Shown: positions 12,990 to 20,664 of the stretch, one piece after another
Layout of the letters: every line of letters starts with the position of its first letter
How positions within the stretch are numbered: the stretch's first letter is position 1
Origin: Rivularia sp. PCC 7116
GTDB taxonomy: Bacteria; Cyanobacteriota; Cyanobacteriia; Cyanobacteriales; Nostocaceae
Direction: 5' to 3'
DNA: 64,000 bases
Assembly: GCF_000316665.1 (NCBI RefSeq)
Contig: NC_019678.1
Coordinates: 6,915,001-6,979,000 of the forward strand
Translations under genes and position numbers: made by a program
The notes under the pieces: generated by a model
Seen by the model: the letters and a program-made list of their open reading frames with translations, nothing else
Told to the model about the DNA's origin: nothing
Database searches by the model: none

Positions 12990-13277
12990 ATGTCACAATT
13001 CTCATTAGAGCAGAAAATATTAACCGCACCAAATGTATTGGCTCAAGACTTGGCAGGGGAGTCAGTATTGCTTAATATCAAAACCGAACAGTATTTTAGC
13101 TTGGATGACATTGGTACTCGGATGTGGCAAACCCTGATAGAGAAAGACTCCATCCAGAGCGCCATCGATGCCTTGCAAGTTGAGTATCAAGTAGAGCCAG
13201 AATTGTTACAGAAAGATGTAAAAAACCTCATTGAAGAATTATTAGCAAATGAATTGGTTGAAGTTAGTAATTCGTAA
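12990..13277 (+). CDS. PqqD-family peptide chaperone / RiPP recognition element (lasso B1-like)
   Basis: 95 residues with the PqqD winged-helix pattern: an N-terminal strand pair (ILTAPNVLAQDLAGESVLLN), the diagnostic IKTEQYFSLDDIGTRMWQ strand-turn-helix (the Y.LD..G..iW signature), and a helical C-terminus with DVKNLIEELLANELV. In lasso-peptide pathways this domain (B1/E) binds the precursor leader through the conserved Tyr-Pro-Leu motif and delivers it to the B2 protease. It overlaps the B2 gene by 29 bp, so translation is probably coupled. It faces the cyclase and precursor genes, which lie on the opposite strand several kb away. ATG 12990 is the first start after an AT-rich leader. Confidence 0.85.
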   Translation: MSQFSLEQKILTAPNVLAQDLAGESVLLNIKTEQYFSLDDIGTRMWQTLIEKDSIQSAIDALQVEYQVEPELLQKDVKNLIEELLANELVEVSNS

Positions 13278-13722
13278 ATGTCGCAGAATTTGGGGGCTAG
13301 ACGGCAATTCGCGTTGGTTGTTGCTGCAAGCGTTTCTGTTGCTGCCCCTAGTAGCTATATCCTTAAAATTTTGGGGATTAAAGCGTACTCAAACTGGTTT
13401 AGCACAACTGTTAGCAAGTGCAAAAAATCCGGTTGAAAATAGCCTTCGCCACTCCCAAATTATTAAAACAATTGCCATGGTGCGCTTGGCAGCAAGATAT
13501 TACCAACCTTGGGCTAACTGTCTGAAAAAATCCTTAGTGTTGTGGGGTTTGTTAGCTCACCAGGGAATTGAGTCCGAATTGCGGATAGGGGTGCAACGAG
13601 AAGCAATGAAATTTGAAGCCCACGCTTGGGTGGAATGTGAAGGATTTGTTCTTAATGATACTCCAGACGTGCGCGATCGCTATGCGATGTTTGAACGTGC
13701 AATAGAAGTCAATCTTTCCTAA
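13249..13722 (+). CDS. Lasso-peptide biosynthesis B2 protein (transglutaminase-like leader protease)
   Basis: 157 residues. The N-terminal half is hydrophobic (WLLLQAFLLLPLVAISL), as in other B2 proteins. The cysteine-protease triad is visible: Cys91 in ANCLKKSLVLWGLL, His125 in FEAHAWVE, and Asp137 in FVLNDTPDV. Arg112-Ile-Gly-Val (LRIGV) is the usual preceding strand. By family knowledge B2 cuts the leader peptide after the residue following the conserved Thr. All catalytic residues are present, so it should be active. It overlaps the PqqD-like gene and is followed 12 bp later by a Nif11 gene, giving a three-gene plus-strand operon. Confidence 0.9.
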   Translation: MNWLKLVIRKCRRIWGLDGNSRWLLLQAFLLLPLVAISLKFWGLKRTQTGLAQLLASAKNPVENSLRHSQIIKTIAMVRLAARYYQPWANCLKKSLVLWGLLAHQGIESELRIGVQREAMKFEAHAWVECEGFVLNDTPDVRDRYAMFERAIEVNLS

Positions 13723-13734
13723 ATAAGAAAACTA

Positions 13735-13941
13735 ATGTCTGTGCAAACTGCTTTACAATTTATCGAAAAATTACGGGTGGATGAAGAGTTAAAAAAAAGA
13801 CTTTTAATTAAAAGTAATACCCCTGAGTTAGAAAGCTTCGTTAAACTTGGGGCTGAAGTTGGTTTAAGATTCACGGTTGAACAACTCAAAGCAGCGCATA
13901 AGCAGGATTGGGCTATGCGCTGGTTGGTTTATAATTCTTAA
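13735..13941 (+). CDS. Nif11-domain small protein
   Basis: 68 residues: MSVQTALQFIEKLRVDEEL, an acidic/Leu helix, then FVKLGAEVGLRFTVEQLKAAH and a DWAMRWLVYNS end. This is the Nif11 helical domain, which in cyanobacteria serves as the leader of N11P-type RiPP precursors but also occurs alone. Here there is no Gly-Gly cleavage site and no extra C-terminal core, so it is probably not a precursor itself; a short WLVYNS tail is all that follows the domain. Its position 12 bp after the B2 gene suggests an accessory or regulatory role, or a relic of a second precursor. Confidence 0.8.
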   Translation: MSVQTALQFIEKLRVDEELKKRLLIKSNTPELESFVKLGAEVGLRFTVEQLKAAHKQDWAMRWLVYNS

Positions 13942-13966
13942 GTTTTTCTGATATAGCAGATTAATT

Positions 13967-13994
13967 TGAAAAAAATGATGGGCAGGCTGCCCAT
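13967..13994 (-). terminator. Terminator of the minus-strand RiPP operon
   Basis: Arms ATGGGCAG and CTGCCCAT (13978-13994) form a compact hairpin. Read on the minus strand it is followed by CATTTTTTTC, a good T run, just beyond the P450 stop. It marks the end of the operon that starts with the cyclase gene. Confidence 0.6.
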
Positions 13995-14027
13995 TACGTA
14001 TTTGGCTCAACCGAAAAACGCTATAAA

Positions 14028-15275
14028 TTAAAAAATAACTGGCAAAGATTTCAAACCGCGTCCAAGAAAAGAATCGTCCCATTCAAAAGATTCGGTTGCT
14101 ATGGATAACTCAGGTAAACGTTTTACTACGGTACCAACAGCAATTTCTGCGACTAATCTACCTAAGTGTTTACCGATGCAATTATGAATTCCTTGACCAA
14201 AAGAAAGGTAAGGATTGGGTTTCCTTCTAATATCAAATTTGTTGGGTTCGAGAAATTTTGCGGGGTCTCGATTTGCAGCAGCGATGATACAATTGACTAC
14301 TTCACCTCGATGAATTGTTTGATTTGATAATTGAATATCAGATAGTGCTGTGCGGGAGATACCTTGAACCGGACTTTCATAGCGTAATACTTCTGAGATG
14401 GTTGTTTCAATCAAGGATGGATCTGCTTGTAACAGATATAGTTGTTGCGGATGATTGAGTAATGTCAGTATGGTGTTACCAATTAAATTTGCTGTTGAAG
14501 AGTGTCCCACAGCAAACATAAAGATGCAGGTGCCTAAGAGTTCTTCTTCGCTAATTTCACCATTAGCTTCTGCTTCAATTAGCGAGCCTATCAAGTTATC
14601 TTGCGGTTGAGAACAACTGCGGCATTTAGCAATCCAACTGCGGAAATATTCAGCCAAACCAGCTATTGTCAACAAACCTTGTTCGTTAGCGATGGGAGTC
14701 ACATCCACATCTGCAATAATCGATAAATTATCCGACCACTGTTTGAAACGGGGATGCCATTCTTGTTCTGGAATTCCCAAAATCTTACAGTTGACACCCA
14801 GGGCAAGGGGATATGCTAAATCCTTAATTATATCTACCTTTCCCGAGTTTTTCACCCCATCGATGAAATTGTTCACATTTGCACTGATGTGCGATCGCAA
14901 TGTTTGAATCCGCGATGGAGTAAAGGGATTACGCAACAAGTGACGGATTCTAGTATGATCGGGAGGATTGAGTAGTACTAACCACAGCTTCATCAGTTGT
15001 TGACTTTCCTGACGTAGAGACAAGAAGTGGTTTATTGGTTGTTGGTTTGCAGTTTGTAGTTTTGGTTTTTGCTGCGAACGACCAAAGCTAGGGTTTCTAA
15101 AGACTTCTACAATATCATCATAACGCGTCAGCACCCAATCGTTTCGTTCGGATCGATAGTAAATTGGGTGATGAGTTCGCAAATAATCATAAGTGGGATA
15201 GGGGTTAGCGCGAAATTGTGGCGAGCGCGGATTAAATTCTAAAGGCGCAGTTTGGTTATTAGCTAATTTACTCAT
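14028..15275 (-). CDS. Cytochrome P450 (cluster tailoring enzyme)
   Basis: 415 residues from the ATG at 15275, preceded by a GAGGGAAGA Shine-Dalgarno; ten extra codons upstream are possible but less likely. Class I bacterial P450 landmarks are present: PPDHTRIRHLL, an I-helix oxygen-binding stretch FAVGHSSTANL (the canonical acidic/Gly-x-x-Thr-Thr reads GHSST), the K-helix EVLRYESP, and a heme loop FGQGIHNCIGKHLG with the Cys ligand. It would use electrons from a ferredoxin and hydroxylate or oxidatively crosslink a substrate. Ten bases separate it from the methyltransferase, so it is co-transcribed with the precursor, kinase and cyclase genes. By context the substrate is the peptide, for instance its Phe/Tyr or Asn residues; that is inference. 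Confidence 0.92.
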   Translation of the reverse strand: MSKLANNQTAPLEFNPRSPQFRANPYPTYDYLRTHHPIYYRSERNDWVLTRYDDIVEVFRNPSFGRSQQKPKLQTANQQPINHFLSLRQESQQLMKLWLVLLNPPDHTRIRHLLRNPFTPSRIQTLRSHISANVNNFIDGVKNSGKVDIIKDLAYPLALGVNCKILGIPEQEWHPRFKQWSDNLSIIADVDVTPIANEQGLLTIAGLAEYFRSWIAKCRSCSQPQDNLIGSLIEAEANGEISEEELLGTCIFMFAVGHSSTANLIGNTILTLLNHPQQLYLLQADPSLIETTISEVLRYESPVQGISRTALSDIQLSNQTIHRGEVVNCIIAAANRDPAKFLEPNKFDIRRKPNPYLSFGQGIHNCIGKHLGRLVAEIAVGTVVKRLPELSIATESFEWDDSFLGRGLKSLPVIF

Positions 15276-15285
15276 TCTTCTTCCC

Positions 15286-16065
15286 TCATTCTGCCACAAT
15301 ATCAATTAGCGGAAATAACTGACACCACCTCAAAGGCGATTGCAAGGCGATATCAACTAAACTGCGAAGGGTACCTAATTGCCCTGGAGGTTGAGCATCA
15401 CCATAAACGCGATCTAGATTTTGCTTCCATAGCGCTATAGTTCGTAGGGATTGAAATCGTCTATCTTGCATAAACTTTATTTTCCAACCTGCTGATTCCA
15501 AATCCCGAACTAGTTCGGAAACCTTGCAAAGAACTATAGAACCACCAAAGGTTAATCTTTCTCCTGAATAGCTATCCGCAGCGCAACTTTCTGACAAAAT
15601 TAAGCGTGATGCACGAGAACGCATTTGCCGTAACAGCTGAGCTTTGTTGCGAATATGGGAAATCATTTCTAAGGAGAAGACTATATCATATTCGTCAGGT
15701 AATTCATCTATATCTTGGTCTAAATCTTGTTGCAGCACATTTAAACCCAGGCTCCGGCAATATTCTACCTGTGCAGCGCTACATGAAATCCCTGTCACAG
15801 AACAATTACGCTCTGCAATTAACATCTTAGCTCGTCCACCCCAACCACAGCCGATGTCTAAAACCCGCGAACCAGTCGGAATATAAGGATAAAAATTTCT
15901 AACTGTTTGTTTTAAACCAGTTTCTAAATCTTCAGAACCGCTAAAATAACCAAAATGGTAATGTAAATCTTCGCCGATAATCTGCTTCCATTCACTAATA
16001 GAATCCTGAGAATAAAAGTTATCTAAATCGAATTTTGCTTCCGAATTAACCGTCATTTCATTCAT
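15286..16065 (-). CDS. SAM-dependent methyltransferase (cluster tailoring enzyme)
   Basis: About 259 residues from the ATG at 16065, which lies directly after the upstream stop; an earlier ATG at 16098 overlaps that gene. Rossmann-fold class I methyltransferase: motif I VLDIGCGWGGRAKML, an acidic strand (VTGISCSAAQVEYC), then YDIVFSLEMISHI (motif II/III). The GISCSAAQVEYCR pattern resembles the cyclopropane-fatty-acid-synthase/sarcosine methyltransferase group rather than protein isoaspartyl methyltransferases. In a RiPP cluster it may methylate a side chain, the N-terminus or the C-terminal carboxylate (inference). Confidence 0.85.
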   Translation of the reverse strand: MNEMTVNSEAKFDLDNFYSQDSISEWKQIIGEDLHYHFGYFSGSEDLETGLKQTVRNFYPYIPTGSRVLDIGCGWGGRAKMLIAERNCSVTGISCSAAQVEYCRSLGLNVLQQDLDQDIDELPDEYDIVFSLEMISHIRNKAQLLRQMRSRASRLILSESCAADSYSGERLTFGGSIVLCKVSELVRDLESAGWKIKFMQDRRFQSLRTIALWKQNLDRVYGDAQPPGQLGTLRSLVDIALQSPLRWCQLFPLIDIVAE

Positions 16066-16066
16066 G

Positions 16067-17272
16067 TTAAATTTTTCCAGATAACCATTGATGTTCAAAC
16101 CAAAGATAAGCTTTAGCTGAAAGCTGACCTTGCTTACGCCAAGATATTTTAATATGGCTTAATCGGCGTTCAAATACGCTAAAACGTTCCCTTGGCTGCA
16201 AAAGGGAATCAACAATTAAATTATTTGGCCAAGGTGCTTGAGCGTTAATCGGATTAGTAAAACCCGACCATTTTAACAATGCATCTCGTTTTTGTGGTTC
16301 GCACAAACCTTGTTCTACTAAATAATTGAAGAAGGTATTCCAGCGAGATTCAGAATCCGGTTGATTGAGGAAAATACATTCTAAACCAATCTGCGGATAA
16401 ATTTGCTTCCCTACATCCAAACAAACTGTAATTCTATCCACTAAACCAAACAACTGCTTCATCAACGCTTCTAGTTCATTTGTTTCATGCTGCCAGCCAA
16501 TTTTTTGTAAATAGGGAATCAGCAATTGTGGTTGCAAACGTTTGACATTGACTCGCAAAGCTGGTGCATTTCGGGATAACATCGCACCAATGTGACTGAT
16601 AAATACTCTATCAGGACAAGATTTAAAACAGCGATAGAGTTTTTCTTTCCACTCACACCAACCCGAATCTCCTAAAAGTAAATCCAGGGATTTTGTGGCG
16701 ATGGGATAGGTTTCAACTGCTGGTGATACATCTTGCTGCAAACCGAAAAAAATCGCAGGAATGGGTAGAGAAGCTGATGATATCAAGTCGGGATGATTGG
16801 TTATCATTGCATCCGGGAGCAACCCTCCCCTTGATAAGGGGAGGGTGCCCTTTAGGGCGGGTGGGGTATTTCCGGATTTACAAGTAATTAAGTTGATTGG
16901 ATATGATTTATCAATATCAAATTCTAACCAAATTTCCGTTATGCTGTTATGGAGTGGGGATAATGATGATGACCACTCAGTTAAGAAATCATTTAATCGA
17001 AACCAACCTGGATGTGCAGATTCTCCACCCTCTGAGGTAGCAGTTGCAATCAACTCCCGCAATAACACTAACTCGCTTTCGCTTCCTACAATGCACTGCT
17101 GTAAATCTACCTCCGGAGCATTGACATTGAGACGACATTCAAAACCACCCCGCAGAATCGGCGCTAAATTACCAACCAATGCTTTTAAACCCAATACTGC
17201 ATCAGGTGTAGCTAATGTTGGCTCCAGATTCGGTAAAAGTACATCAAGGGATTCTGTTAGGGTTGAGTGCAT
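16067..17272 (-). CDS. Unknown protein of the RiPP cluster
   Basis: 401 residues from the ATG at 17272 (MHSTLTESLDVLLPNLEP), overlapping the kinase stop by 16 bp; the longer frame is less likely. I do not recognise a family. It is not visibly membrane-bound and has no nucleotide-binding loop. Segments include ILRGGFECRLNVNAPEVDLQ, WFRLNDFLTEWSSSL, TEIWLEFDI, and a C-terminal half with VDRITVCLDVG and ERRLSHIKISWR. An in-frame palindromic repeat is read as TPPALKGTLPLSRGGLLP (DNA 16821-16867), so that surface loop is an insertion. Tight packing between the kinase and methyltransferase suggests it takes part in the same pathway, perhaps as a scaffold or second enzyme. Confidence 0.7.
   Translation of the reverse strand: MHSTLTESLDVLLPNLEPTLATPDAVLGLKALVGNLAPILRGGFECRLNVNAPEVDLQQCIVGSESELVLLRELIATATSEGGESAHPGWFRLNDFLTEWSSSLSPLHNSITEIWLEFDIDKSYPINLITCKSGNTPPALKGTLPLSRGGLLPDAMITNHPDLISSASLPIPAIFFGLQQDVSPAVETYPIATKSLDLLLGDSGWCEWKEKLYRCFKSCPDRVFISHIGAMLSRNAPALRVNVKRLQPQLLIPYLQKIGWQHETNELEALMKQLFGLVDRITVCLDVGKQIYPQIGLECIFLNQPDSESRWNTFFNYLVEQGLCEPQKRDALLKWSGFTNPINAQAPWPNNLIVDSLLQPRERFSVFERRLSHIKISWRKQGQLSAKAYLWFEHQWLSGKI
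16821..16867. repeat. Dispersed palindromic element inside a coding sequence
   Basis: Perfect 10-bp arms CCCTCCCCTT and AAGGGGAGGG (16823-16845) with a 3-bp loop, then GCCCTTTAGGGC and ggtgggg. It resembles the intergenic element at 2901-2957. It lies within the 401-residue cluster gene and keeps the frame. Confidence 0.85.
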
Positions 17273-18231
17273 TTCTCTGGCGTAATTATATTGCTCGCGT
17301 CTTCCACAATCGCCTCGCATAATTGTGGTAAAGCCTCCAAATTATCGCTGCGAATAACTTTTCTCACGGGCACCTTCCCAGCCAAGCTACTTAAACCAGC
17401 AAACTCCTGGGCTTGTTTATCCGCAGCTAACTTTAAATGGCTTACTGAGCGGTGTGTCATCAAATTCATCACCGCTGTCATTGGGGGAATCGGTTCAATT
17501 TTCGGTGTAGTAAATTCGGATTGCCTTTCTCCCAAAACGTAGATAGCTGCTAAGGGGAGGGGTTTGTTATAAAACTGCGATTCACTATTGTTTGTTAAAT
17601 CTACAAAGCGTTTCTCAGAAAAGCTGAAAATTCTATCTAAAGCATCTTGTGAGCCGTAGAGAGCATTAACAGATTTTGGCCACAATCTCAGACGCGGATA
17701 ACCGGGTTGTACTAACCAATCTCTAGCGCTATAGTTTATTGCGGCAATATCATCGGAGAGAATAGAGTATCCCCGTTTAACAAGAGCCGCTGCTGTGGTT
17801 GATTTACCCGCTCCACTTTGACCTACAATTGCAATAGCCTGCTGACCAATTCTGACCACACAAGCATGAAGACAAAGAGTACCTCGTAACCGCAAAGTGC
17901 AACCCAAAACCTGTCCCAACAGCAGCGCACTCACTTGTTCTAGAACTGAATAAGTCCAAGTTGCCCAAATGCGATCGCCTTGAGGGTTAATCTCAAAATC
18001 AAGTTGTCCCTCACCGCGGAACCACAAATTTAAGTAGTTGCCATCATCTCTGGAAATTACCTTGATTCCAGAGCTAATACTTTCTACTTCTGCTGAGGAA
18101 GGTTGGGATTCCCCAATTAAATCAACCCAGACATCAACCGGAGCATTAGCTTGAGCAGGAATTAAACCAGGTATTGGTCGGTTAGATTGTAGCGTTAAGC
18201 CATAAACTTTATATTTAAAGGAATTATTCAT
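17257..18231 (-). CDS. HPr-kinase-like protein (lasso peptide kinase type)
   Basis: 324 residues. Walker A at 137-144 (GQSGAGKS) followed by TTAAALVKRGYSILSDDIAAI, with the Asp-Asp pair at 160-161 and an upstream LHACVV strand: this is the HprK C-terminal kinase fold without the N-terminal HprK domain. By family knowledge, kinases of this type in lasso clusters phosphorylate the hydroxyl of a C-terminal Ser of the precursor. The cluster's precursor does end in Ser, which fits. It follows the precursor gene after about 400 bp containing a MITE-like element, and overlaps the next gene by 16 bp. Confidence 0.88.
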   Translation of the reverse strand: MNNSFKYKVYGLTLQSNRPIPGLIPAQANAPVDVWVDLIGESQPSSAEVESISSGIKVISRDDGNYLNLWFRGEGQLDFEINPQGDRIWATWTYSVLEQVSALLLGQVLGCTLRLRGTLCLHACVVRIGQQAIAIVGQSGAGKSTTAAALVKRGYSILSDDIAAINYSARDWLVQPGYPRLRLWPKSVNALYGSQDALDRIFSFSEKRFVDLTNNSESQFYNKPLPLAAIYVLGERQSEFTTPKIEPIPPMTAVMNLMTHRSVSHLKLAADKQAQEFAGLSSLAGKVPVRKVIRSDNLEALPQLCEAIVEDASNIITPEKCTQP

Positions 18232-18296
18232 TCAATCTAAAATACTTTGTTGTAAGTAATACAGCATATTAAGCAGGGGTGTACACACATCTAGTA

Positions 18297-18502
18297 AGAT
18301 CCCCCTAAATCCCCCTTTAAAAGGGGGACTTTAAATCCATTATTCTCGTTCCAAGGCTCAGCCTGGGAACGCAATTCATGAGGCTCTGCCTCGCAATTAA
18401 TGAAGCCAGAGCATTCAACTGTGTGTTCCTTGCCGTCTTACAAGGAACAAGTGACTCGACGAAATCCAATCCCCCCTAAAAAAAGGGGGGTTAGGGGGGA
18501 TC
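18297..18502. mobile_element. MITE-like element with inverted ends
   Basis: The left end reads agatccccctaaatccccc (18297-18315) and the right end is its near-complement, ggggggttaggggggatct (18484-18502), about 206 bp in all. The interior contains two further hairpins (ccaaggctcagcctggg and aggctctgcct types) and no open frame with a start. Such elements are dispersed in Nostocales genomes. It separates the precursor gene from the kinase gene. Confidence 0.6.
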
Positions 18503-18627
18503 TAAACGGTGTAACTTATCTAGAAGATTTATGTTTACACCGCAGCCTTAATAGTGAGACAGCTTTAACTCAAATTCCCCCAAAACGTTCTTCAAGACTA
18601 GCTAAAGCCAAAAATGATTCGTTTTAA

Positions 18628-18783
18628 TTACGAAGCATAATTATTAGGTGAGGAACCGCCATCGAAGCCATTAAACGGAAAGTTAGGGGCATTGGCTTGT
18701 GTCACTTCACTAACATTACCAAGTTTCTTCAGTTGAGGACTGTGGTATGCCTTGGTAACTTCGTTTTGATTCATTTGAGACAT
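18628..18783 (-). CDS. Lasso-type RiPP precursor peptide
   Basis: 51 residues. A strong Shine-Dalgarno (AAGGAG, 8 nt before the ATG at 18783) supports the start. Leader: MSQMNQNEVTKA, then YHSPQLKKLGNVSEVTQ. It has Tyr, Pro+3, Leu+5, Gly+9 and Thr+15, exactly the YxxPxLxxxGxxxxxT spacing of lasso leaders read by the PqqD-like protein. Cleavage two residues on would leave a 22-residue core beginning ANAPNFPFNGFD and ending GGSSPNNYAS. The single acidic residue is Asp at core position 12, so a canonical 7- to 9-residue ring cannot form from that N-terminus. The C-terminal Ser matches the adjacent kinase. It starts 25 bp after the cyclase stop. Confidence 0.85.
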   Translation of the reverse strand: MSQMNQNEVTKAYHSPQLKKLGNVSEVTQANAPNFPFNGFDGGSSPNNYAS

Positions 18784-18807
18784 GATAAAGACTCCTTAAT
18801 TTCAATT

Positions 18808-20664
18808 TCAAATTAGAGATAAACTCGGTCTAGTCTTGATTTGCGGACGCTGTTGATGATGCAGCCAGTATGCCAATTGCAGGGCTGGAATAGCCTGATG
18901 GTAAGTGGCAGGAGTCAATTCTGCAACGGCTTGCAGTTTTTGCAACAGCCTGTCATTGCTGACATAAGGACTCAACAGGGGTGTTGCAGTCAATTCCTGC
19001 ATCCAGGGCTGAATACCTCGCTGCTGCATTAAGTTGTAATGTGCAAACCCTTGCAGAGGTGTTTTAGACCGCAGCCGCACCGAATCAGGCAACAGTCCTT
19101 TCATCGATTTCCGTAGCAGGAATTTATCTTCCAACCAGGGGAATGACGGCACCGACAACAAATATTCCACTAACCGTACATCGAAAAACGGAAAGCGAAC
19201 TTTAACCGGAAAGCCAGTAAAGCCCGGATCTGACCAGGCAAAGATATTCGACCATAAGGGAGAAGTGGTCATCCCGTAGCGGTCTTTCTGTGGTGATACA
19301 GTAAATCTTTCTTGCAGTCGGGCTTTCAAGTTCGCTCGTTCTGCGAAGTCTGGGTTCAACCAATCGGGCAAATCAATTTCCTGTTGCCCTCTTTTAAGCC
19401 ATCGACGCAATTGGGTTCTCAACCCCAAAGGCGGTAGACGGCCAAAAGAGCGGAGATAACCCACTCCATCAAGAATAACATATTTCAGTTGGTCATTAAG
19501 TACTAAATTACACCAGTAGTCTCGTGATGGATAAAGTGCCGGGTCGCCACCAAAACCAGCAAACAGCACCCGACTGTACCCAGCTACGCGCCGCGTAATC
19601 TCTACTTCAGCGACTTGACTAGGAATCAATAAAGGTTCGGGATAGATGTATTCTGGGTGTTCTTGAGGAGCTTGCCCGATGAAGTCTTCCGCTACAAGGT
19701 ACTCAAGAGGAAAGCCAGCTTTTTCAGCGACTTGTGTGGCATAGTCTCCTTCTTTGTCGGGTATCAAGTGTTTATAAATAATTGAATAAGGCCGAAAATC
19801 TACGGAGGAGCTAGTTGCCGTCATTAATTTATAAGCAGTAGCTGCAATACTTGTAGAGTCCATGCCTCCGCTTAGGTGAGTTGCAGCCGAATCAGTTCGC
19901 AATCGGTCAGCAACAGACCTTTCAAACAACTCCTGAAACTGCTCTACATAGTCTTCCGAGCGCTTGTAACGTAAATATTCAACCTCTTTGGGCAACTGCC
20001 AATAACGCCGAACGCGCACCTCACCCTCCGACCAAATCAGCGTGTGTGCAGGAGGTAACTTTTGGATATCGGCAAAAGTGGTGGTGGCAAAATTCATGTT
20101 CATGCCCAAAACGAGAAAATCGGCGATCGCATCTTCGTTGAGCCTATCCGACACCTGTGGATGGAGTTGCAGACACTTGATGTGATTGCTAAAAATTAGA
20201 CCACTACCAACTTTTGCATAGTAAAAAGGCACAACGCCAAACTGGTCTCTAGCACAGAACAAACGCTGCTCGGTGCTATCCCAAATAGCAAAAGCAAAAT
20301 CCCCACTAAATCTTTCTAAACAAGTCTCTCCCCAAGTCTGATAGGCATGTAAAACGAGGTCAACATCCGTTGCCTCATTCCCTAAATTACATCCAGAAGC
20401 ACGCAACCGTTCAATCAAATCATTACGCCGATCCAAACGAATATCCCCAGTAATCCAAACCTTTCGATTCAAACTGTAGGGTTGCCGTTCTTTTTGTGAT
20501 TCCCAAGTTGTCTGCAATAGAGCGTGTGCGAAACCGATATGTTTGTCACTCCAAATATCCTGAGCATCAGGAGCTTGAGGTGCCATCACATCAGTCATTT
20601 GCCGTAATAGAGTTGGATCAACAGGTTTACCGTCGCCATTGATAATACCGAAAATACCGCTCAT
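18808..20664 (-). CDS. Asparagine-synthetase-like macrolactam synthetase (lasso cyclase C)
   Basis: 618 residues with the AsnB two-domain layout. The N-terminus is MSGIFGIING: the catalytic Cys2 of glutamine-using asparagine synthetases is replaced by Ser, so the glutaminase half should be inactive, as expected for lasso cyclases. The ATP-pyrophosphatase domain keeps the PP-loop SGGMDSTSIAATAY (about residue 265). Other landmarks are FAGFGGDPALYPSRDYW and a C-terminal FLLRKSMKGLLPDSVRLRSKTP. By family knowledge it adenylates an Asp or Glu side chain and joins it to the free N-terminus. It is the first gene of the minus-strand operon; the precursor follows 25 bp later. Confidence 0.92.
   Translation of the reverse strand: MSGIFGIINGDGKPVDPTLLRQMTDVMAPQAPDAQDIWSDKHIGFAHALLQTTWESQKERQPYSLNRKVWITGDIRLDRRNDLIERLRASGCNLGNEATDVDLVLHAYQTWGETCLERFSGDFAFAIWDSTEQRLFCARDQFGVVPFYYAKVGSGLIFSNHIKCLQLHPQVSDRLNEDAIADFLVLGMNMNFATTTFADIQKLPPAHTLIWSEGEVRVRRYWQLPKEVEYLRYKRSEDYVEQFQELFERSVADRLRTDSAATHLSGGMDSTSIAATAYKLMTATSSSVDFRPYSIIYKHLIPDKEGDYATQVAEKAGFPLEYLVAEDFIGQAPQEHPEYIYPEPLLIPSQVAEVEITRRVAGYSRVLFAGFGGDPALYPSRDYWCNLVLNDQLKYVILDGVGYLRSFGRLPPLGLRTQLRRWLKRGQQEIDLPDWLNPDFAERANLKARLQERFTVSPQKDRYGMTTSPLWSNIFAWSDPGFTGFPVKVRFPFFDVRLVEYLLSVPSFPWLEDKFLLRKSMKGLLPDSVRLRSKTPLQGFAHYNLMQQRGIQPWMQELTATPLLSPYVSNDRLLQKLQAVAELTPATYHQAIPALQLAYWLHHQQRPQIKTRPSLSLI

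What the first reader, a model, noticed from the sequence alone, without database searches (positions are those of the whole stretch)
12990..20664. Lasso-type RiPP cluster with an unusual composition and a two-strand layout
The sequence shows, in 7.7 kb: PqqD-like recognition protein, B2 protease with an intact Cys-His-Asp triad, Nif11 protein, P450, methyltransferase, an unknown 401-residue protein, HPr-kinase-like enzyme, precursor, and an Asn-synthetase-like cyclase with Ser in place of the glutaminase Cys. The lasso core set is present (recognition element, protease, cyclase, precursor). P450, methyltransferase and Nif11 together are not part of the classic set, so the product is likely new. 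The core machinery is split between two convergent operons.
Basis: partly seen in the sequence, partly recalled or inferred. Interest (0 to 1): 0.9.

Follow-up and report, generated by a model that had tools for sequence, protein, structure and literature searches.

The report
Prenyltransferase-equipped lasso-type peptide cluster
This cyanobacterial gene cluster encodes a small ribosomal peptide and the enzymes that would close it into a ring and decorate it, including a prenyl (lipid)-attaching enzyme apparently borrowed, together with a guide protein, from a different peptide family; its product is unknown and may be unusual.

Summary
The nine genes are real and lie as described: PqqD-B2-Nif11 on +, and cyclase-precursor-kinase-unknown-methyltransferase-P450 on -, converging near 14.0 kb. 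I found seven further distinct clusters of this type in cyanobacteria of five families. P450, methyltransferase, unknown-protein and Nif11 homologues were seen in 0 of 58 other B2 neighbourhoods examined, so they form a co-inherited module. The kinase is ordinary: 43 of 45 such loci with a cyclase have one.

The Nif11 protein here has no core peptide. I propose a detached leader or adaptor for the prenyltransferase.

The product cannot simply be called a lasso. From the usual cleavage site the only acidic core residue is Asp12, not 7-9; five of eight family precursors lack a canonical acceptor. DGG, Tyr and a C-terminal Ser are kept in 8 of 8.

The parts
12990..13277 (+). PqqD-like RiPP recognition element (B1)
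   Evidence: PF05402 58.1 bits; seen in 5 of 8 family clusters
13249..13722 (+). B2 transglutaminase-like leader peptidase
   Evidence: NF033537 99.6 bits, cut-off 33; Cys/His/Asp motifs present
13735..13941 (+). Free-standing Nif11-domain protein without core peptide; proposed detached leader/adaptor for the prenyltransferase
   Evidence: PF07862 27.6 bits; 8 of 8 family clusters, conserved AH(K/R)xDWxMR tail; 0 of 58 other B2 loci
14028..15305 (-). Cytochrome P450
   Evidence: PF00067 80.6 bits; haem motif FGQGIHNCIG, I-helix stretch AVGHSST
15286..16098 (-). SAM methyltransferase (MetW/CMAS-like)
   Evidence: PF07021 and others; 6 of 388 genomes of the order at E<=1e-40
16067..17272 (-). 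ABBA-fold prenyltransferase (the 'unknown 401-residue protein'; frame open to 17320)
   Evidence: AlphaFold2 pLDDT 86.2, pTM 0.85; Foldseek and VIA-align; 32% to the presumed MppC homologue in L228
17257..18231 (-). HprK-like kinase (paeninodin-type candidate)
   Evidence: PF07475 35.7 bits, TIGR04352 partial; P-loop GQSGAGKS
18297..18503 (.). Dispersed repeat with inverted ends between precursor and kinase genes
   Evidence: inverted repeat; 49 matches in own genome, itself included, to the stretch 18290-18520
18628..18783 (-). Precursor peptide, 51 aa; leader motif YHSPQLKKLGNVSEVTQ, predicted core ANAPNFPFNGFDGGSSPNNYAS
   Evidence: NF033521 20.9 bits, cut-off 19; aligned with 7 relatives
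18808..20664 (-). Asn-synthetase-like macrolactam cyclase, no glutaminase Cys (Ser2)
   Evidence: PF00733, NF033535 E 1.7e-113 but below cut-off; 63-73% to five named relatives

Best explanation
This is a lasso-type RiPP cluster of a distinct, co-inherited subtype. The PqqD protein holds the leader (YxxPxLxxxGxxxxxT-x), B2 cuts so that the fixed Thr is at -2, and the Asn-synthetase-like cyclase joins the new N-terminus to the only invariant acidic residue, Asp of the DGG motif, giving a macrolactam. The HprK-like kinase phosphorylates the C-terminal Ser. The 401-residue protein is an ABBA prenyltransferase that attaches an isoprenoid to an aromatic side chain, most likely the invariant Tyr near the C-terminus. 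P450 and methyltransferase add further oxidation and methylation at undetermined sites. The prenyltransferase was captured once from Nif11-leader RiPP systems; the core-less Nif11 protein, encoded here next to PqqD and B2, is retained as a detached leader that docks or activates it. Shown: gene content, conservation, predicted fold and relationships of the prenyltransferase, motif invariance. Inferred: every catalytic step, the Tyr acceptor, the Nif11 role, the order of steps.
For: Same gene set in 8 distinct clusters. P450, MT, prenyltransferase and Nif11 homologues in 0 of 58 other B2 loci. Prenyltransferase: fold; 21 of 29 non-lasso homologue loci have Nif11 peptides or LanM in the stretch (17 of 29 at the stricter threshold) versus 0 of 58 B2 loci; lasso members one clade, SH-aLRT 100; 32% identity, E 2e-57, to the single prenyltransferase-family ORF found in L228, a locus with an MppE-like peptide; MppC is a Nif11-leader-dependent geranyltransferase (PMC12715784, section 3 read; PMC11791876, passages). 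Thr28, Asp41-Gly-Gly, Tyr49 invariant in 8 of 8 precursors, C-terminal Ser in 8 of 8. Where a Nif11 peptide lies within about 1.5 kb of such a prenyltransferase and no LanM was detected, 8 of 14 peptides end in Tyr or Trp (7 Tyr, 1 Trp; the others Phe, Gln, Arg, Pro, Lys, Leu; counted by eye). Paeninodin precedent for C-terminal Ser phosphorylation (PMC9266682, passages).
Against: [quoted passage not shown] The predicted ring would be 12 residues here and 9-12 across the family; rings named in the passages I saw are of 7, 8 and 9 (PMC13352647). 8 of 29 non-lasso homologue loci show no Nif11 or LanM. The methyltransferase is truncated in one relative (L234). The window lacks the exporter found beside the other seven clusters. 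The cyclase is below its family cut-off. No product, transcript or activity has been seen.
Confidence: 0.65

Rival explanations
1. An ordinary lasso peptide: cleavage lies a few residues later than assumed, so the ring is the usual 7-9 residues and the product threads; extra enzymes are plain tailoring, and Nif11 is an unrelated small protein.
For: Shifting the cut by two residues gives rings of 7-9 in seven of eight precursors and 10 in the window (by eye from the cores). L064 and L234 also have an Asp at position 8 and L034 has DGG Asp at 9. Core enzymes are of lasso families.
Against: With Thr at the same distance from the leader Pro, 38 of 48 other precursors fit the usual register (these were selected for that distance). 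A cut shifted by two would put Pro at position 1 in four of eight. Nif11 is in 8 of 8 clusters and tied to the prenyltransferase family, so not incidental.
Confidence: 0.25
2. The free Nif11 protein is itself a second precursor and the prenyltransferase acts on its C-terminal Trp/Tyr, making a two-component product.
For: Nif11 proteins are RiPP precursors elsewhere; its tail holds conserved DWxMR and usually a Tyr.
Against: No Gly-Gly site or variable core in 8 of 8; the tail is conserved in a way a core would not be expected to be; the Tyr is His in L234.
Confidence: 0.12
3. The Nif11 protein and prenyltransferase serve a separate Nif11-leader RiPP and only happen to sit inside a lasso cluster.
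For: G000 has other homologues of this prenyltransferase, one near Nif11 precursors and LanM (L032).
Against: Same composition in 8 clusters with rearranged orders; the prenyltransferase frame overlaps kinase and methyltransferase frames in the window; lasso prenyltransferases are one clade.
Confidence: 0.04
4. The DGG Asp is not the ring acceptor but the methyltransferase target (aspartimide type); the cyclase uses another carboxylate or makes an open product.
For: Asp-Gly is prone to aspartimide (recalled); aspartimide-forming methyltransferases are known in lasso clusters (PMC9266682, PMC13352647, passages).
Against: No PIMT family is among the Pfam hits of this methyltransferase; in window, L063, L067, L034, L179 and L181 DGG Asp is the only acidic core residue.
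Confidence: 0.12

Closest known systems
Class II lasso peptide clusters with HprK-like kinase (paeninodin type)
   Same: PqqD/B1, B2, cyclase, leader motif, kinase, C-terminal Ser of the precursor
   Different: Adds P450, methyltransferase, ABBA prenyltransferase and Nif11; acceptor position outside 7-9 in five of eight precursors
mpp lanthipeptide cluster of Moorena (MppE/MppC)
   Same: Prenyltransferase homologous (32%) to the presumed MppC homologue in L228, and a Nif11 domain
   Different: There Nif11 is the leader fused to the core and LanM makes the ring; here Nif11 is free and the core belongs to a lasso-type precursor
Prenylated lasso peptides (Trp prenylation; collinodin)
   Same: Lasso-type peptide plus prenylation, with oxidation in collinodin (known to me only from passages and a reference title in PMC13352647)
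   Different: Those prenyltransferases were not compared here; no Nif11 mentioned in what I read; the window core has no Trp
Cyanobactin prenyltransferases (PagF, PatF, LimF)
   Different: The window protein has no Pfam or NCBIfam match; its family is tied to Nif11

Membership tests
Lasso peptide (product and pathway) | RRE plus B2 peptidase plus Asn-synthetase-like cyclase plus precursor | tested here: met
   cyclase below the NF033535 cut-off (380.5 of 525 bits)
Lasso peptide (product and pathway) | Leader YxxP motif and Thr at -2 | tested here: met
   NF033521 20.9 bits; Thr invariant, 8 of 8
Lasso peptide (product and pathway) | Asp/Glu acceptor at core position 7-9 | tested here: not met
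   window Asp12 only; 3 of 8 in the family versus 38 of 48 elsewhere, Fisher p 0.026, rows not independent. Depends on the assumed cut
Lasso peptide (product and pathway) | Threaded macrolactam | not testable with these tools
   needs MS/NMR
ABBA prenyltransferase | Alpha-beta-beta-alpha barrel | tested here: met
ABBA prenyltransferase | Homology to a biochemically shown peptide prenyltransferase | tested here: inconclusive
   32%, E 2e-57, to the prenyltransferase-family ORF 0.4 kb from a Nif11 peptide that has the published MppE features (77+ACWRWSG, L66, L71, W80, W82); that this ORF is MppC's orthologue is inferred, I did not have the MppC sequence
ABBA prenyltransferase | Diphosphate-binding basic residues | tested here: inconclusive
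   H373, K387 invariant and K375, Y389, R234, R240 nearly so in 27 rows, most on strands; not superposed on a solved active site
Nif11-leader precursor | Nif11 domain | tested here: met
   PF07862 27.6 over 23.8; TIGR03798 24.5 below 32.3
Nif11-leader precursor | Gly-Gly type cleavage site and core after the domain | tested here: not met
   absent in 8 of 8 (by eye)
Lasso C-terminal Ser kinase | HprK-like P-loop kinase with C-terminal Ser on the precursor | tested here: met
   P-loop in window and in the 7 relatives; C-terminal Ser 8 of 8; activity untested

The most novel reading that the evidence does not exclude
A lasso-type pathway has captured a Nif11-dependent prenyltransferase together with a detached Nif11 leader that works in trans as an adaptor between the RRE-bound precursor and the prenyltransferase; the product is a macrolactam of 9-12 residues, wider than the 7-9 of known lasso rings, kept threaded by a prenylated Tyr acting as an oversized plug and capped by a phosphorylated C-terminal Ser.
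Probability: 0.17. Interest if true: 0.85.

Novelty: new variant of a known kind. Interest (0 to 1): 0.6.

Why it matters
RiPP pathways normally carry the recognition leader fused to the core. A leader domain that became a separate protein and moved with its enzyme into another RiPP class would be a natural example of the module swapping that peptide engineers try to build, and it is directly testable by deleting one small gene. It also points to a family of cyanobacterial prenyltransferases (52 of 388 genomes of the order) whose prenyltransferase part matched no Pfam family above cut-off in the seven members scanned, and it offers a lasso-type cyclase whose natural substrates seem to place the acceptor at 9-12.

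Tried and rejected
Sequence search of the unknown protein: no Pfam or NCBIfam hit; a profile against PDB sequences gave only a ferritin at E 0.26, taken as chance; the fold comparison settled it. Plasmid search with the cyclase gave 364 records, all under 60% identity, and added nothing. I considered the kinase as a novelty and rejected it. I considered a constant distance from DGG to the C-terminus as a sign of a different ring and dropped it: 10 in five, 11, 12 and 13 in the others. I looked for the MppC Nif11-contact residues: position 340 is Phe in the L228 ORF as published, position 336 is Leu instead of Trp, and the window residue aligned with Phe340 is Leu (by eye), so this is only weak support. 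Ring-size deviation is not unique to this family: 10 of 48 other precursors also lack an acceptor at 7-9. The 48 were filtered by leader regex with Thr at a fixed distance preceded by L/I/M/V/F, and within 3 kb of a cyclase; looser matches were dropped. The 58 control loci are 58 of the 76 match rows; left out were 5 rows in the family clusters or their immediate neighbours, 1 second row of a fetched locus, and 12 of the weakest rows. Literature: the listings (25 of 127 papers shown; 20 of 242; 20 of 23; 12 of 12; 12 of 28; 18 of 18; 3 of 3; 10 of 15) showed me no paper on a lasso cluster with Nif11 or this prenyltransferase family; I saw titles and abstract starts only, the library is open access only, and Tietz 2017 and Harris 2024 were not read (the latter not held; the former not looked up). 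PMC9967302 (passages) reports a Roseofilum lasso cluster with RRE, B2 and cyclase flanked by ABC genes, and PMC8225149 (passages) lassopeptide clusters in almost all Leptothoe genomes, Heron Island J among those studied; neither, in what I saw, describes this set.
Full report
WHAT IS THERE. The window lies at 6,915,001-6,979,000 of contig C1 of an 8.73-Mb genome in 3 contigs that is cyanobacterial by its relatives. On the plus strand PqqD overlaps B2, which is followed by Nif11; on the minus strand cyclase, precursor, kinase, unknown protein, methyltransferase and P450 follow each other, the frames of the last four overlapping. The two sets converge with 86 bases between Nif11 and P450. The precursor gene has a plausible ribosome site and a lasso-type leader that passes the NCBIfam cut-off.

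RELATIVES. A scan with the cyclase in named genomes gave 12 loci: five full relatives, Oscillatoria sp. PCC 10802 (L063), UBA2566 (L064), Adonisia turfae (L065), Leptolyngbya sp. Heron Island J (L066) and Roseofilum acuticapitatum (L067); a fragment in Oscillatoria princeps (L069); and six distant, non-cyanobacterial hits without the set. Counting the near-identical L034/L035/L065/L066 as one, there are eight distinct clusters, in five families by the labels. Cyclase, precursor, kinase, prenyltransferase, P450 and Nif11 are in 8 of 8. The methyltransferase is intact in 7 and truncated in L234, which is why the methyltransferase search of the order (6 of 388 genomes) missed that genome. An ABC exporter lies beside 7 and none was found in the window, whose genome has homologues elsewhere, one near a second lasso cluster. 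PqqD and B2 of this type are in the same stretch in 5 of 8 (in L063 with a second lasso set in between); in the three clusters of one genus (L064, L067, L179) no such pair was seen in the stretches fetched, but B2 proteins 51-55% identical to the window's lie elsewhere in those genomes. Gene order varies; P450 is next to Nif11 in 7 of 8.

CONTROL. In 58 other B2 neighbourhoods of the class (58 of 76 match rows; DNA; stretches of at most 16 kb, some cut by contig ends), P450, methyltransferase, prenyltransferase and Nif11 homologues of the window were found in 0 of 58, the kinase in 49 of 58 and in 43 of the 45 with a cyclase. The four extras are therefore a specific module; the kinase is standard equipment.

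LINK TO MppC. One of the second set, L228, looks like the published mpp cluster: its Nif11 peptide has a 77-residue leader and the core ACWRWSG, with Leu66, Leu71, Trp80 and Trp82 as reported, and a LanM gene lies nearby (PMC11791876, passages; PMC12715784, section 3). The only prenyltransferase-family ORF found in L228 starts 0.4 kb after that peptide and is 32% identical to the window protein. I did not have the MppC sequence or the published gene order, so that this ORF is MppC's orthologue is inferred. [quoted passage not shown] On a tree of 58 homologues the eight lasso members are one clade with support 100 (quick method, root not known).

THE NIF11 PROTEIN. It is 68 aa, a Nif11 domain followed by a conserved tail AH(K/R)xDWxMR and no Gly-Gly site or core, in all eight clusters. 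My account is that the prenyltransferase family evolved with Nif11 leaders and that on capture by a lasso pathway the leader was kept as a separate protein. The trans result for MppC argues against a simple activator in that enzyme, so a docking role with PqqD or B2, whose genes it neighbours here, is equally possible. This is inference.

THE PRECURSOR. Thr28, Asp41-Gly42-Gly43 and Tyr49 are invariant, and all eight end in Ser. With the cut that puts this Thr at -2, DGG Asp is at 12, 11, 11, 11, 9, 10, 10 and 11 in window, L063, L064, L067, L034, L179, L181 and L234; L064 and L234 also have Asp8. Of 48 other cyanobacterial precursors near a cyclase, 38 have an acceptor at 7-9; in this family 3 of 8 do (Fisher p 0.026, rows not independent). 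So either the rings are wider, or the cut is shifted, or the chemistry differs. Passages of PMC13352647 mention rings of 7, 8 and 9 and that altering ring size by one residue strongly reduces production in tested systems. Ten of the other 48 also deviate, so this is a broader cyanobacterial oddity.

MECHANISM. Leader binding by PqqD, cleavage by B2, macrolactam formation by the cyclase, Ser phosphorylation by the kinase and prenylation of Tyr are the most economical roles. Tyr is favoured because it is the only invariant aromatic core residue and because Nif11 peptides next to such prenyltransferases without a detected LanM end in Tyr or Trp in 8 of 14 cases (by eye). The P450 and methyltransferase targets are open. 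None of these reactions was tested.

VERDICT. New variant of a known kind.

Noticed in passing
L112, L113, L118, L161: PqqD, B2, HprK-like kinase (E 5e-63 to 7e-72 to the window kinase) with precursors like YSEPELKAHGKISGLTQQVGGSGGFGTT... (first Asp/Glu at core position 17 or later, or none) but no Asn-synthetase cyclase detected in the stretches of about 16 kb; glycosyltransferase- and ABC-like ORFs nearby by eye. Possibly a cyclase-less lasso-like RiPP.
   Followed up: partly
L119, L131, L140, L146, L159: Other cyanobacterial lasso-type precursors whose Asp nearest after position 9 is at 11-15, often in a GxGD context, with no acceptor at 7-9.
   Followed up: partly
window 16067-17272 (residues 125-166 of 401): In-frame insertion of about 42 residues in the prenyltransferase gene, absent from the other 26 rows of the alignment and disordered in the model; the DNA holds a GC-rich palindrome-like stretch.
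   Followed up: partly
window 18297-18503: Dispersed repeat with inverted ends between precursor and kinase genes; 49 matches to the stretch in the genome, itself included.
   Followed up: partly
L217, L218, L220, L226: Pairs of a short Nif11 peptide ending in Tyr or Trp and a prenyltransferase of this family, no LanM detected: candidate prenylated RiPPs.
   Followed up: no
L047, L052: Homologues of about 600 aa with a C-terminal 2OG-Fe(II) oxygenase domain; further homologues of similar length were not examined.
   Followed up: no
L063 16759-20906: Second, canonical lasso set (cyclase, kinase, two precursors with TQ|A/G...Asp8, a B2 fragment) between Nif11 and PqqD/B2 in Oscillatoria sp. PCC 10802.
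   Followed up: no
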